Source of the DNA: Halovenus sp.
GTDB taxonomy: Archaea > Halobacteriota > Halobacteria > Halobacteriales > Haloarculaceae
Assembly: GCA_003551945.1 (NCBI GenBank)
Contig: PUNZ01000173.1
Span: 1-64,000, forward strand
Length of the DNA stretch: 64,000 nucleotides
Direction: 5' to 3'
The notes under the pieces were generated by a model. It did not search any database. It was not told the origin of the DNA and saw only the letters and a list, made by a program, of their open reading frames with translations. Of this stretch, positions 5,407 through 48,956 are shown one piece after another; positions within the stretch are counted from its first letter, which is position 1; each line of letters begins with the position of its first letter. The position numbers and the translations under genes were made by a program.

Positions 5407-6687
5407 ATGGCCCGCTACCATATCGAGACCTACGGGTGTACGGCAAATCGTGGGGAAAGCCGCCAGATTGAGCGGTCGCTCCGCGAGGGAGGTCACCACC
5501 GCGTGGACTCTCCCGAGGAAGCCGACGTTGCAATCCTCAACACCTGCACGGTCGTGGAAAAAACGGAGCATAATATGCTTCGGCGGGCAAAAACCCTTGA
5601 TGAGGAAACGCCAGCAGACCTCGTAATTACGGGCTGTATGGCGCTTGCACAGGGAGCGGAGTTTGAACAGGCAGATATCAACGCAGACATTCTCCACTGG
5701 GACGAGGTTCCAGAACACGTTAGAAACGGCGAGTGTCCGACCCCAACACCGGATACCGACCCGATTGTCGATGGCGTCGTGGGAATTCTCCCGATTGCTC
5801 GCGGCTGTATGAGCGACTGTTCGTACTGTATTACGAAACACGCCACCGGAAAAATTGATTCGCCACCTGTGGAGAAAAATGTCCAGAAGGCACGCGCGCT
5901 GGTCCATGCTGGAGCCAAAGAACTCCGAATCACCGGGCAAGATACCGGCGTCTACGGCTGGGATACTGGTGAGCGAACGCTCCATACATTGCTTGAGCGA
6001 ATCTGTACGGAAATCGAAGGCGAGTTCCGTGTCCGCGTTGGGATGGCAAACCCAAAGGGCGTCCATGGCATCCGTGACGAACTGGCAGCCGTGTTTGCCG
6101 AACACGACAAGCTGTATAACTTCCTCCATATCCCCGTACAATCGGGGAGCAACAGCGTGTTGGGAGATATGCGACGCCAGCACCAAGTCTCGGAATTTAT
6201 CGACGTTGTCGACACGTTTGATTCGTATCTCGATGAGTGGACGCTCTCAACGGATTTTATCGTTGGCTTCCCGACCGAGACCGAGGAAGACCACCAGCAA
6301 TCGCTTGACTTACTCAAAACGGTCAAACCGGAGAAAATCAACATCACACGGTTCTCAAAGCGGCCTGGAACGGACGCAGCAACGATGAAAGGGCTGGGTG
6401 GACAGGTCAAAAAGGACCGCTCTCGGGAGATGACCGAATTAAAAATGGAGGTCGTCGGTGAGGCACATGAGGCGATGGTTGGAACCATCAGGGAAGTCCT
6501 GTGTGTCGAAGATGGGACTGATGACTCGCTCGTTGGCTACGACCAATCCTATCGGCAGGTGGCGATTCCCGGTGCCCAATCACAGGGCGTTTCGCTCGGT
6601 GACACGGTTTCCTGTGAAATTACCGGGCATAACACCGTCTACGCGCTGGGTGAACTCGTAGAGACAAAAACGACCCAAACCGCTTAG
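5407..6687 (+). CDS. tRNA (N6-threonylcarbamoyladenosine(37)-C2)-methylthiotransferase, CDKAL1/MtaB-like radical SAM
   Basis: Y.ETYGCTANRGES UPF0004 domain, radical-SAM ARGCMSDCSYCITKHATG, C-terminal TRAM-like region. Confidence 0.93.
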   Translation: MARYHIETYGCTANRGESRQIERSLREGGHHRVDSPEEADVAILNTCTVVEKTEHNMLRRAKTLDEETPADLVITGCMALAQGAEFEQADINADILHWDEVPEHVRNGECPTPTPDTDPIVDGVVGILPIARGCMSDCSYCITKHATGKIDSPPVEKNVQKARALVHAGAKELRITGQDTGVYGWDTGERTLHTLLERICTEIEGEFRVRVGMANPKGVHGIRDELAAVFAEHDKLYNFLHIPVQSGSNSVLGDMRRQHQVSEFIDVVDTFDSYLDEWTLSTDFIVGFPTETEEDHQQSLDLLKTVKPEKINITRFSKRPGTDAATMKGLGGQVKKDRSREMTELKMEVVGEAHEAMVGTIREVLCVEDGTDDSLVGYDQSYRQVAIPGAQSQGVSLGDTVSCEITGHNTVYALGELVETKTTQTA

Positions 6688-7982
6688 AACTCCGCAAACG
6701 TCGGGCTCTTAGACTCACCGGGGAAAGCATCAACAGGAACGGATTTCTGGTCACCAGAGGTCATATCCTTGAGCGTTACCTCTCCGTTTTCGAGGTCTCG
6801 CTCACCGACGATGACAACAAGGTCTGCGTTAATGCTATCTGCATAATCCAACTGGGCACCGAAACTTCGGCCAGCAATATCCGCCTCCACGATGTTGCCC
6901 CCAGCGCGGAGGTCTCGGGCAATACGGGCCGCAGTTGGCCGAGTGTCACCAACCTGCAGGACGTAATAATCCGTCGTAACGCTCTCCTCCGGCCAGACAC
7001 CGGCGCGCTGACAGAGCAACGAAAGCGTTGCGTGACCAGGTGCAAACCCAACGGCAGGTGTCGGCTGTCCCCCAAAGCCTTCGATGAGTGTATCGTACCG
7101 ACCGCCACCGAAAACTGCGCGTGAGACTTCGCCCGTGGAGTCGAAACATTCGAACACAACGCCAGTATAGTAATCAAGCCCACGGGCGGTCGTCAGCGAG
7201 ACCGTACAGTGCTTTCGAACCCCGAAATCCTCCGTTGCCGCAAGCACGTTCTCTAGGTTTTCGACAGCCTGTTCGACCCGGTCTGTCCCGGCAAAGTCGA
7301 CCAGTTCGTCAAGTGAATCCGCTGGCGTGGTGAGAAGCTCATCAAATTCGCGGGCTTGTGAGTCGCTCAATCCAGCATCGGTAAGGAGTTCGAAATACTG
7401 CCCTTCATCAATCTTTGCCCGTTTGTCGACAGCCCTGATTGCGGCAGTTGTATTGACATCTCCAAACGTTTCGAGCAATCCACCGAGAATATCACGGTGA
7501 GATACCTTGAAGTCGAAATCTTCGCTACTCAGTCCAAGTTCGGTCAACCCATCTGCTGCGACCGCGAGAATTTCCGCATCCGCGGCAGGGTCAGCAGAGC
7601 CAAAAATATCGACGTTGGTCTGGTAAAACTCACGGAAGCGGCCCTGTTGTGGCTCTTCATAGCGCCAGAATGGACGCGTGGACATCCATTTAATCGGCTT
7701 CGACAGTTCCTGTTGCTTTGCGACAACCATCCGGGCAACTGTTGGGGTGAGCTCTGGCGTCAACGCAAGTTTGCGGCCACCTTTATCCTCGAAGGCGTAG
7801 AGCTCTTCAAGAATCTCGTCGCCGCTTTTATCGGCATACATTTCAGCCCGTTCAAGCGCTGGTGTTCCAATTTCCCGAAAGCCGTACTGGCGGGCAACCG
7901 TCTCGATGGTATCCGTAACCTGCCGCCGCGCCTGCATCTCTTCGGGATAGAAATCTCGAAATCCCTTGATTCGGTCGTACAT
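6684..7982 (-). CDS. hisS: Histidyl-tRNA synthetase
   Basis: RIKGFRDFYPEEM, TARGLDYYTGVVFE, GGGRYDTLIEGFGG motifs. Confidence 0.96.
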   Translation of the reverse strand: MYDRIKGFRDFYPEEMQARRQVTDTIETVARQYGFREIGTPALERAEMYADKSGDEILEELYAFEDKGGRKLALTPELTPTVARMVVAKQQELSKPIKWMSTRPFWRYEEPQQGRFREFYQTNVDIFGSADPAADAEILAVAADGLTELGLSSEDFDFKVSHRDILGGLLETFGDVNTTAAIRAVDKRAKIDEGQYFELLTDAGLSDSQAREFDELLTTPADSLDELVDFAGTDRVEQAVENLENVLAATEDFGVRKHCTVSLTTARGLDYYTGVVFECFDSTGEVSRAVFGGGRYDTLIEGFGGQPTPAVGFAPGHATLSLLCQRAGVWPEESVTTDYYVLQVGDTRPTAARIARDLRAGGNIVEADIAGRSFGAQLDYADSINADLVVIVGERDLENGEVTLKDMTSGDQKSVPVDAFPGESKSPTFAEF

Positions 7983-45984: not shown

Positions 45985-46284
45985 ATGAGTAGCGAATCAA
46001 CAATCAACCCCGAGGAGATGTCGCTCGATGAGTTGCGGACCGAGATTCGGGATATCGACCGGGATATCGTCGAGTTGATTGCCCGGAGAACGTACGTTGC
46101 CGATACGATTGCGCAGGTCAAAGCAAGCAAAGACCTCCCGACAACCGATGAAAAACAAGAGGAGGTAGTGATGGACCGTGCCGGCGAAAATGCGGAACGA
46201 TTTGATGTTGATGCAAATCTTGTCAAAGCAATCTTCCGATTACTTATCGAACTGAACAAGGTTGAACAACGCGAGAATCGGTGA
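45985..46284 (+). CDS. aroQ: Chorismate mutase (AroQ class)
   Basis: MSLDELRTEIRDIDRDIVELIARRTYVADTIAQVKASKDLP...AIFRLLIELNKVEQRENR*. Confidence 0.93.
   Translation: MSSESTINPEEMSLDELRTEIRDIDRDIVELIARRTYVADTIAQVKASKDLPTTDEKQEEVVMDRAGENAERFDVDANLVKAIFRLLIELNKVEQRENR
46252..46284 (+). repeat. Upstream copy of 33-bp direct repeat (chorismate mutase 3' end)
   Basis: ctgaacaaggttgaacaacgcgagaatcggtga; 30/33 identical to 47966-47998. Confidence 0.9.
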
Positions 46285-47086
46285 AACCGGCATTCCGTGG
46301 CGATTCAAACATAAGGTGAGCGAACCGCTCTTGGAAGGCACTTCAGAAGAGCTGTTCTCCGTCGTTTCTCCTCCAGTGGGCGGGCCCGATGTTTTCGTAC
46401 CGCTCGGCGAGTCGCAACTCCGAGAACATCTCGAAGCCACGAACGACCCAGAACCAAGACGGCTGGCATTCAAAGCCGTCGATTCGACGGAACAGATGAT
46501 CGGGTACGTAGAACTGAACACGATTGACCGACGAAATCTCTCAGCGAGCGTCTCACGGGTCATCGTGAGCCCAGACGAACGCGACCGCTTGGAACGGGAG
46601 CAACGGAACCTCTCGCGCAAAGAACACAGGTCGAACAACTGGGAGAAACAACGCCAGACCGTAGCCGAGCGCTACCAGAAAATAAAGCGCAAGCGGCGTG
46701 ATTTCCTGCACAAACTCTCGGCATACTATGCTCGGGAGTATGACCTTGTGGCTGTTGAAGACCTCAACGTGAAGGGGATGCTGGAATCACCGCGTAACAG
46801 CCGCAACAGGGCGTCTGCGGCGTGGGGAACGTTCCTCCGAATGCTGGAATACAAGAGCGAACGGGAAGGGACGCACTTCGTTGCGGTTGACCCAAGAGGA
46901 ACGACCAAAGAGTGTGCAGGGTGTGGTGTGGAGACGGACAAACCACTGTGGGTACGTGAGCATTCGTGTCCATCATGTGGGTTTGAAGCGGATAGAGATT
47001 TGAATGCAGCGTGGAATGTTCTTTCTCGCGGTCTTTCAGAACTAGGAGTGGTTCACTCCGAAGGAACGTCCTCAGAATCGCCATGA
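46285..47086 (+). pseudogene. Chimeric pseudogene: GNAT acetyltransferase N-terminus fused to TnpB C-terminus
   Basis: Frame reads WRF...EELFSVVSPPVGGPDVFVPLGESQLREHLEATNDPEPRRLAFKAV...GYVELNTIDRRNLSASVSRVIVSPDER (GNAT), then DRLEREQRNLSRKEHRSNNWEKQRQTVAERYQ...LVAVEDLNVKGM...CAGCG...CPSCGFEADRDLNAAWN (TnpB). Confidence 0.85.
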
Positions 47087-47124
47087 GATTCTGATGGGCT
47101 GCGAAAATCGCACAGCGATTTTCG
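47072..47124 (+). repeat. Two tandem hairpins inserted in the tnpB 3' tail
   Basis: tcagaatc-gccatga-gattctga and cgaaaatcg-cacag-cgattttcg; the first loop carries the in-frame TGA. Confidence 0.7.
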
Positions 47125-47190
47125 AACGCCTGTGGAGACTGCGCTCCCTACGGGAACTGCGGTTGTTCCTGCAAAGCACGTCGTGGAAAC

Positions 47191-47255
47191 AGGAAGCCCC
47201 ACCCTCAACGAGCAAACGGGAGACGCCGTGAGCGAGTAGGGTGGGGTAGTTCACT
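47191..47255 (+). mobile_element. IS200/IS605 (IS1341-type) right end / probable omega-RNA scaffold
   Basis: Hairpin ccccaccct (47197-47205)...agggtgggg (47238-47246) followed by tagttcac; overlaps tnpB tail VVETGSPTLNEQTGDAVSE*. Confidence 0.7.
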
Positions 47256-47284
47256 ACGCTCTCATATTGATTACAGCAGATACG

Positions 47285-47638
47285 TCAGTCCAGTCCGAGA
47301 CTCAGTTTCAATGCCTCGTCCACCGTCTCCATCGTCTCTGTGTCGAGGCTTCCAAGCACCGAGTGAATCCGCTTTTCGATGGAGACGACACGTATCTGGT
47401 CGAGGCGAATTGAGGAATCGTTCTCAAACGGTGACTCCGCCGCTTCGACGAGGACCTCGAACGGATAGCCTCGATACGTTCCCGTGGCAGGCGCAACGAT
47501 AGTCGTACTAGCATTGTTATTCCCAACATCGTTCTGGACGACTACTGCAGGACGAGTTTTCTTCATTTCGTGCCCTTCGGCAGGATCAAGTCGAACGATA
47601 ACAACGTCGCCGCGACGAATTTCCACGTCCTCGCTCAT
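47285..47638 (-). CDS. PemK/MazF family toxin
   Basis: IRRGDVVIVRLDPAEGHEMKKTRPAVVVQNDVGN...TIVAPATGTYRGYPFEV. Confidence 0.9.
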   Translation of the reverse strand: MSEDVEIRRGDVVIVRLDPAEGHEMKKTRPAVVVQNDVGNNNASTTIVAPATGTYRGYPFEVLVEAAESPFENDSSIRLDQIRVVSIEKRIHSVLGSLDTETMETVDEALKLSLGLD

Positions 47639-47874
47639 TTATCCAGCCCGCTCCACGCCTCGTCCGATGCTTCGTCCCACTCTTCTGCAAGCTCTTCCGC
47701 ACTCTGAGATGCCTCGCGGTACGCAGCAGCCAGTTCATCTTCATTGGGTTGGTCAGATTCTACCTCGACGACGGCGACGGTCACACGTTTGTTGGCGTAC
47801 TCCGTTCCAAGATAGATTCGGCCTCGATCGTCGGTCTCGTTCGTTCGGAGGTCCCGAGCATCTACTTTCGTCAT
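47635..47874 (-). CDS. AbrB-like antitoxin
   Basis: ETDDRGRIYLGTEYANKRVTVAVVEVE; ATGA overlap with the toxin start. Confidence 0.8.
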   Translation of the reverse strand: MTKVDARDLRTNETDDRGRIYLGTEYANKRVTVAVVEVESDQPNEDELAAAYREASQSAEELAEEWDEASDEAWSGLDK

Positions 47875-47965
47875 GTTACCAACTTGGACCTACTGCTGAA
47901 TAAACATTGCCCACTATTACCCACGAAAGATATTTTCTGTAACTCGTGCCATGGATTTCATCTAC

Positions 47966-47998
47966 CTGAACAAGGTTGAGCAACGGGAAAATCGGTGA
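47966..47998 (+). repeat. Downstream copy of 33-bp direct repeat (orphan chorismate mutase 3' end)
   Basis: ctgaacaaggttgagcaacgggaaaatcggtga encodes LNKVEQRENR*; three mismatches, all synonymous third positions. Confidence 0.9.
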
Positions 47999-48045: not shown

Positions 48046-48828
48046 TCAGGAAAGATATGCGCTTGCTATCGTTTGCAACTGCTCGCTCTCTTCAAGCGTA
48101 TGTGTCGTTGAGAGGGGCGAGACGCTAATATGATTATTTAGAATGGTTCGTCGGTCCGTTCCCTCTTCATCGGGGATGTCACCATCCGCCATTTTCTCCC
48201 AGAGTTCGTCCTCAATGTCGATTGTCTTGCCGTTGCGCTTGGCGGTTAGTTCAGAGACAGGGGACGGATAGGTGAGTTTTATCTGGTCGGTGCTCCGTTC
48301 GACCGTTGGGGCATTGACGTTCAGATAATCAATCCGGTCAAATAGCTCGTTTTCCACAGCCTGCTCGGTAAGATACGCTGTCGCCTTGACGGCCGATTCG
48401 TATGCTTCCGACGTGCGGTTGAAACTCCGTGGGTCAAACTCATCACCCGGGATGTACATCGATGAGGCAACCGCAGGAACTCCAAAAAACGCCGCTTCGA
48501 CGGCAGCGCTCACAGTTCCGGACCTGCCAAGGGTCACAGCACCGAGATTTGCACCACGGTTACAGCCCGAGACAACGACATCTGTCTCCGGACACAGTTC
48601 CGAGAGTCCTGCAATCACACAGTCAGATGGTGTCCCGTGGACAAGGTAGCCCAGTTCGTGCTCACCGTATTCGACAGAGTACGAAAGTGTCCGACCCACC
48701 GCGCTTTGGTCGTCTGCAGGAGCCACGACAGTCACATTGCCAATATCGGAAAGACCAGCAGCGAGCGCACGTATGCCCGGCGCCTCAATGCCGTCGTCAT
48801 TTGTCACGAGAATTTCGAGGTCGCTCAT
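48046..48828 (-). CDS. surE: 5'/3'-nucleotidase SurE
   Basis: MSDLEILVTNDDGIEAPGIRALAAGL, VVSGCNRGANLG. Confidence 0.95.
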   Translation of the reverse strand: MSDLEILVTNDDGIEAPGIRALAAGLSDIGNVTVVAPADDQSAVGRTLSYSVEYGEHELGYLVHGTPSDCVIAGLSELCPETDVVVSGCNRGANLGAVTLGRSGTVSAAVEAAFFGVPAVASSMYIPGDEFDPRSFNRTSEAYESAVKATAYLTEQAVENELFDRIDYLNVNAPTVERSTDQIKLTYPSPVSELTAKRNGKTIDIEDELWEKMADGDIPDEEGTDRRTILNNHISVSPLSTTHTLEESEQLQTIASAYLS

Positions 48829-48956
48829 ACCGGGACCTTGGGGGCTGGTGGTATCAAGGTGGCGTTTGGGTATCCAGCGACCCACACAAAGAGCGTGATT
48901 TTGCTACCAGCAATGGCAGGGAACTGCACCGCAGATAGCTCAGTGGGCCAAGGCAG

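What the first reader, a model, noticed from the sequence alone, without database searches (positions are those of the whole stretch)
46285..47086. In-frame GNAT-TnpB chimera joined at a shared DER codon run
Seen directly: one frame carries a GNAT-like N-terminal half ending ...ASVSRVIVSPDER, where GNATs normally continue GRGLG. It switches to a TnpB C-terminal part starting DRLEREQRNLSRKEH, which in haloarchaeal TnpBs normally follows a DERDR-like segment. Junction DNA is gacgaacgcgac at about 46574-46585. RuvC-II (VEDLNVKGM), the zinc finger and RuvC-III (DRDLNAAWN) are present; the N-terminal domains and RuvC-I are gone. There is no in-frame ATG at the GNAT start, only a TTG inside aroQ. 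Inference: microhomology-mediated deletion or insertion made the fusion. A noncatalytic exapted role is possible but a decaying pseudogene is more likely.
Basis: partly seen in the sequence, partly recalled or inferred. Interest (0 to 1): 0.75.

Follow-up and report, generated by a model that had tools for sequence, protein, structure and literature searches.

The report
Broken fusion inside aroQ cassette hotspot
The fused gene is almost certainly deletion debris, but it sits in something more interesting: in many salt-loving archaea the end of the same metabolic gene (chorismate mutase) serves as a docking site where small mobile gene cassettes, mostly toxin-antitoxin pairs, line up in tandem.

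Summary
One open frame (46262/46316-47086) joins a GNAT piece to the C-terminal half of a haloarchaeal TnpB at GACGAACGCG (46574-46583). Donors for both halves were found. An intact GNAT lies in the same place after aroQ on a Halomontanus rarus plasmid (96% DNA identity). An intact TnpB lies on another contig of the same genome (84% identity from the junction on). H. rarus GNAT and 24 TnpB relatives share those 10 bp exactly. One deletion between the repeats would explain the missing GNAT end, TnpB N-terminus/RuvC-I and internal att site. The GNAT piece also lost its start codon and carries a frameshift, so the fusion is most likely a pseudogene.

Following its edges gave the more interesting result. 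The last 39 bp of aroQ recur at 47960-47998, and the intervening 1.7 kb is an insertion: a close relative has aroQ directly next to surE. Tandem same-strand aroQ-tail repeats occur in at least 41 of 117 sampled haloarchaeal genomes. They bound small cassettes (median about 1.1 kb; 33 of 50 carry toxin-antitoxin genes), shared between families. One cassette pair maps the crossover to about 8 bp, CTGAACAA. No integrase was seen in the arrays tested. I found no published description.

The parts
45985..46284 (+). aroQ, chorismate mutase type II (99 aa); its 3' end is the integration site
   Evidence: CM_2 3.6e-18
46253..46284 (+). left copy of the aroQ-tail core (attL-like), TGAACAAGGTTGAACAACGCGAGAATCGGTGA
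   Evidence: repeat D2, 39 nt, 87%; PWM score 47.2
46285..46583 (+). remnant of a GNAT cassette: leader plus GNAT codons; 94-bp deletion at about 46354 and 1-bp deletion near 46400 relative to the donor
   Evidence: 94-96% DNA identity to Halomontanus rarus NZ_CP119800.1; second intact copy in G220
46574..46583 (+). deletion junction, GACGAACGCG, shared by the GNAT donor and many TnpB relatives
46574..47086 (+). C-terminal part of TnpB (RuvC-II, zinc finger, RuvC-III); no RuvC-I
   Evidence: 84% DNA identity to intact tnpB on G000:C61 from the junction on
47087..47253 (+). retained 3' end / right end of the IS200/IS605-type element (presumed omega-RNA region), conserved up to about GGGTGGGGTAGTTCAC
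   Evidence: alignment A1; 95% match on G000:C155
47285..47638 (-). PemK/MazF-type toxin gene
   Evidence: PemK_toxin 1.3e-30
47635..47874 (-). presumed cognate antitoxin gene (79 aa, overlaps the toxin gene by 4 bp)
   Evidence: position; a similar small gene directly precedes PemK in other cassettes
47264..47998 (.). right part of a mobile PemK cassette, including its right arm
   Evidence: 91% to G250 (L194), 88% to G190 (L193), all ending at the same core
47960..47998 (+). right copy of the aroQ tail (attR-like), preceded by conserved arm CATGGATTTCATCTACC
48046..48885 (-). surE, native right flank; adjacent to aroQ in relatives G007 and G011

Best explanation
The chimera is a non-functional by-product. 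Small mobile cassettes integrate at the 3' end of aroQ and stack in tandem, each bounded by a copy of the aroQ tail (shown by comparison). Here a GNAT cassette and a PemK cassette had stacked, and a TnpB element (IS200/IS605 type) had landed between the GNAT gene and the toxin gene (inferred). A deletion between two copies of GACGAACGCG, one in GNAT and one in tnpB, then removed the GNAT 3' half, the internal tail copy and the TnpB N-terminus. It left an in-frame fusion because the repeat encodes DER in the same phase in both genes (breakpoints and repeat shown; one event inferred). A second repeat-mediated deletion and a frameshift, earlier or later, removed the GNAT start. The cassettes most likely move by site-specific recombination within about 8 bp (CTGAACAA) of the aroQ tail, restoring aroQ each time, using a recombinase supplied in trans (crossover position inferred from one cassette pair; enzyme not identified).
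For: Donors and breakpoints. Ten-bp junction repeat, chance about 2e-5. Loss of RuvC-I. Empty site: G007 has the aroQ tail about 50 bp from surE, the window's right copy is 48 bp from surE; G004 has 26.5 kb where G005 and G002 have aroQ next to the following gene. Order-wide tandem repeats, same strand, zero reversed-pattern control hits. Cassette exchange: GNAT 96% identical to H. rarus while aroQ is 80% and aroK 68%; whole cassettes 91-99% identical at different array positions in different genomes; identity breaks at the 8th base of the core in the pair L187_1/L196_2. GNAT cassette also at a non-aroQ site in G220, ending at TTAACAA.
Against: The genome is a draft with 270 contigs and reads could not be mapped. 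No genome was found with the intermediate (GNAT cassette, tnpB insertion and PemK cassette all intact). No recombinase was identified, and no circular cassette or movement was observed. Repeats of 32-40 bp at about 85% identity could in principle recombine by other routes.
Confidence: 0.8

Rival explanations
1. The fusion is a working, non-catalytic exapted protein, for example a DNA- or omega-RNA-binding regulator carrying a GNAT tail.
For: The frame stays open for 256 codons from GTG 46316, and the zinc finger and half the RuvC fold remain; the element's 3' end is kept.
Against: The native start codon is gone and the first 28 codons are leader plus shifted frame; the GNAT part stops before the acetyl-CoA-binding GRGHG motif; TnpB's N-terminal domains and RuvC-I are lost; no other genome searched has the fusion.
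Confidence: 0.06
2. The junction is an assembly artefact in a draft genome.
For: 270 contigs and several tnpB copies in the genome; no reads to map.
Against: The shared sequence is only 10 bp, shorter than typical assembly k-mers; no second GNAT copy exists in the assembly; flanks on both sides match relatives.
Confidence: 0.05
3. The aroQ-tail cassettes are spread by homologous recombination of arrays between species, not by a site-specific recombinase.
For: Repeats are 32-40 bp; haloarchaea recombine readily (own knowledge); no integrase found in the arrays.
Against: The breakpoint in L187_1/L196_2 falls within about 8 bp of the core; conserved arms flank different cargo (24 and 8 of 50); the GNAT cassette sits at a non-aroQ site with almost no homology in G220.
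Confidence: 0.2
4. It is a classical integron array (attC sites, IntI).
For: Tandem small cassettes in one orientation, rich in toxin-antitoxin genes.
Against: The repeats are the coding end of aroQ and mostly do not fold better than shuffled sequence (z from -2.2 to 1.6); no integrase seen next to the array.
Confidence: 0.04

Closest known systems
Repeat-mediated deletions in Haloquadratum walsbyi (PMC3119063)
   Same: Deletions between direct repeats of 4-20 bp, many transposase pseudogenes, haloarchaeal host
   Different: Here the deletion fuses two unrelated genes in frame
IS200/IS605-type TnpB (NF040570 guided_TnpB)
   Same: C-terminal half, zinc finger, RuvC-II and III, right end
   Different: No N-terminal domains and no RuvC-I; no complete catalytic site
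Integrons, including archaeal integrons (PMC9668308)
   Same: Tandem small cassettes in one orientation, each with one recombination site; many toxin-antitoxin genes
   Different: Site is the 3' end of aroQ and mostly does not fold; no linked integrase; that paper's main text does not name Halobacteria
Archaeal integrative elements with att sites in protein genes (PMC8371274)
   Same: Integration within a coding gene is known, e.g. HMG-CoA reductase for virus BJ1
   Different: aroQ is not named there; these cassettes are about 1 kb, tandem and without integrase
SCC elements at the 3' end of rlmH/orfX in staphylococci (own knowledge, not tested)
   Same: Tandem elements stacked at the 3' end of a conserved gene, restoring it, some without recombinase
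   Different: Much larger, use Ccr serine recombinases, bacterial

Membership tests
TnpB, RNA-guided endonuclease | full-length protein with RuvC-I, II and III acidic residues | tested here: not met
   RuvC-I lies before the junction in the donor (residue 194 vs 218) and is absent
TnpB, RNA-guided endonuclease | OrfB_IS605 and Cas12f1-like TNB domains | tested here: met
   5e-17 and 1.7e-23, OrfB_IS605 partial (profile 51-118)
GNAT acetyltransferase | complete domain with acetyl-CoA binding motif R/Q-x-x-G-x-G/A | tested here: not met
   sequence stops at DER where the donor reads DERGRGHG; Pfam only 0.13
Site-specific integration locus | direct repeat of the target gene end at both borders | tested here: met
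   39 nt, 87%
Site-specific integration locus | empty site in a close relative | tested here: met
   G007: aroQ tail then surE after about 50 bp
Site-specific integration locus | dedicated recombinase | tested here: inconclusive
   Pfam PF00589 hits in 20 array genomes, none listed within an array; the list was cut at weak hits
Integron | attC sites folding into hairpins | tested here: not met
   five of six sites within about 1.6 sd of shuffles, one at z -2.2
Integron | intI gene next to the array | tested here: not met
   no integrase listed near arrays nor in plasmid annotation

The most novel reading that the evidence does not exclude
Haloarchaea have an integron-like gene-capture system of their own: a dedicated recombinase, acting in trans, inserts circular, non-autonomous cassettes at the 3' end of aroQ (occasionally elsewhere), building tandem arrays of toxin-antitoxin and accessory genes that are exchanged between families.
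Probability: 0.5. Interest if true: 0.82.

Novelty: new variant of a known kind. Interest (0 to 1): 0.6.

Why it matters
The chimera itself is a well-traced example of how short-repeat deletions turn transposon genes into fused pseudogenes in haloarchaea. The locus around it suggests an order-wide cassette-capture hotspot in a domain where such systems are little described. It gives a defined attachment core and arms, an empty site and candidate cassettes, so the recombinase can be sought and tested directly. It would also explain how small toxin-antitoxin modules spread among haloarchaea.

Tried and rejected
Rfam on the window and three array loci: nothing. The one viral-contig match to the core is a coding coincidence in an unrelated phage gene. 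Phage records: no GNAT and no att match. Pfam on ten proteins of the 26.5-kb G004 insert: no recombinase. Tyrosine integrases near arrays: none listed. attC-like folding: not supported. Matches to TnpBs from residue 46 on could have hinted at a true TnpB N-terminus; they are read as alignment run-on, since the DNA match to donors starts at the junction. Literature searches found no description of aroQ as an integration site; only open-licence papers were searchable.

Full report
Observation. The window carries an open frame 46262-47086 (+). From residue 87 (counted from GTG 46316) it is TnpB: NCBIfam guided_TnpB 7.6e-52, but only profile positions 224-389; Pfam OrfB_IS605 and TNB. The front half is GNAT, too short for Pfam (0.13) but 96.7% identical over residues 30-89 to an annotated GNAT of Halomontanus rarus plasmid NZ_CP119800.1.

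GNAT donor. In H. rarus the gene order is shikimate kinase, chorismate mutase (aroQ), GNAT (177 aa, intact). Window 46285-46583 aligns with it (94% overall; 96% in the GNAT part) and the match stops sharply at 46583. Relative to the donor the window has lost 94 bp between two copies of ATTCTCCG, which takes away the native GTG start, and 1 bp near 46400 (CCCG to CCG). The chimera frame therefore reads GNAT only from residue 29. A second intact GNAT cassette, 94.8% identical to that of H. rarus, lies in genome G220, away from aroQ.

TnpB donor. G000:C61 holds an intact 421-aa TnpB; DNA identity to the window is 84% and begins at the junction. It is a relative of the true donor, not the donor itself, since it reads GACGAACGGG where the window reads GACGAACGCG. 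DERDR is at residue 218 and RuvC-I at 194, so RuvC-I and all upstream domains are lost. The element's right end is kept up to about 47253, where relatives diverge.

Junction. GACGAACGCG is present in the H. rarus GNAT and, at the homologous DER position, in 24 of the TnpB relatives compared. A random join of the two genes would show 10 bp or more of shared sequence with probability about 2e-5. Repeat-mediated deletions with 4-20 bp repeats, and many transposase pseudogenes, have been described in Haloquadratum (PMC3119063). The fusion was not found in the other genomes of the family (148 searched with the GNAT half, own included). I conclude: pseudogene made by deletion. Shown: breakpoints, repeat, donors. 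Inferred: one event, and its order relative to the other lesions.

The surroundings. The last 39 bp of aroQ are repeated, 87% identical, at 47960-47998, followed after 48 bp by surE. In the close relative G007 the aroQ tail is followed by surE after about 50 bp; G011 likewise has surE next to aroQ. So 1.7 kb has been inserted at the 3' end of aroQ. In G004 the two tail copies are 26.5 kb apart, while G005 and G002 have the downstream gene directly after aroQ.

Order-wide survey. The tail pattern was found in 187 of 295 genomes without mismatches; 22 (own included) had two to four copies, all on one strand; the reversed control pattern gave none. With up to three mismatches in 117 genomes (98% completeness was asked for; own genome included at 82%), I count at least 41 with a second copy on the same strand within 6 kb: 39 in the listed rows, plus G168 and G190. 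The list was truncated, and hits with three mismatches are weaker evidence. Arrays were read in about 35 loci: 50 intervals, median 1.08 kb. Of these, 33 carry a gene of a toxin-antitoxin type (PIN, VapC, PemK, RelE). Others carry GNAT, a HisH-like amidotransferase, SDR or regulators. The loci were picked mostly because they had repeats, so the 33 of 50 describes arrays, not genomes. Named plasmids show the same: Haloterrigena alkaliphila (four cassettes), Natronorubrum bangense, Natrononativus amylolyticus, Halobacterium sp. DL1.

Mobility. The same cassette occurs at different places in arrays of different genomes, 91-99% identical in DNA. GNAT is 96% identical between the window and H. rarus, aroQ 80% and aroK 68%. 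In the pair L187_1/L196_2 (99.5%), left flanks differ up to the core and the right ends part company at its eighth base, which places the crossover within CTGAACAA. This rests on one very close pair; other pairs are too diverged to be sharp. The 50 bp before the core are shared by 24 of 50 intervals with different cargo, and a second type by eight. The right part of the window's own insert, 47264-47996, is 91% and 88% identical to PemK cassettes in G250 and G190 and ends at the same core.

Mechanism. Insertion into the 3' end with restoration of the gene and a left-over copy on the far side is what site-specific recombinases do at tRNA and other genes. No tyrosine recombinase was listed inside any array among 20 genomes, although the listing was cut at weak hits, so the enzyme is probably supplied in trans. 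This is inference. The sites do not fold like integron attC, so it is not an integron by definition, though it may work like one.

Novelty. Att sites in archaeal protein genes are known (PMC8371274), and integrons have been reported in archaeal MAGs, with no mention of Halobacteria in the text searched (PMC9668308). I found no description of aroQ as a site; only open-licence papers could be searched. I score the chimera alone at about 0.2 and the locus at about 0.7; the overall 0.6 reflects that the second grew out of the first.

Noticed in passing
46246-46284 and 47960-47998: aroQ tail duplicated at both borders of a 1.7-kb insert between aroQ and surE; part of an order-wide tandem cassette hotspot
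   Followed up: yes
L203 (G220:C1:228500-240500, read on the reverse strand) 5860-6660: Complete GNAT cassette at a site away from aroQ, bounded by a core-like TGAAGAAGG and by an arm ending TTAACAA: a possible secondary integration site
   Followed up: partly
L031/L032 (G004:C48:296597-323199): 26.5-kb insert between two aroQ-tail copies, with mostly unassigned genes and no recombinase found by Pfam in ten proteins
   Followed up: partly
L200 (G205:C2, read on the reverse strand) 6981-7744 and L201 (G122:C1) 5935-6228: PIN/AbrB and PemK cassettes with an aroQ-tail copy but no aroQ nearby
   Followed up: partly
L193 (G190), read on the reverse strand, about 1475-1540: Right end of a TnpB element (reverse orientation) begins directly after an aroQ-tail core
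   Followed up: no
L188, L190, L191, L187, L134: Several Natrialbaceae replicons annotated as plasmids carry shikimate kinase and chorismate mutase genes
   Followed up: no
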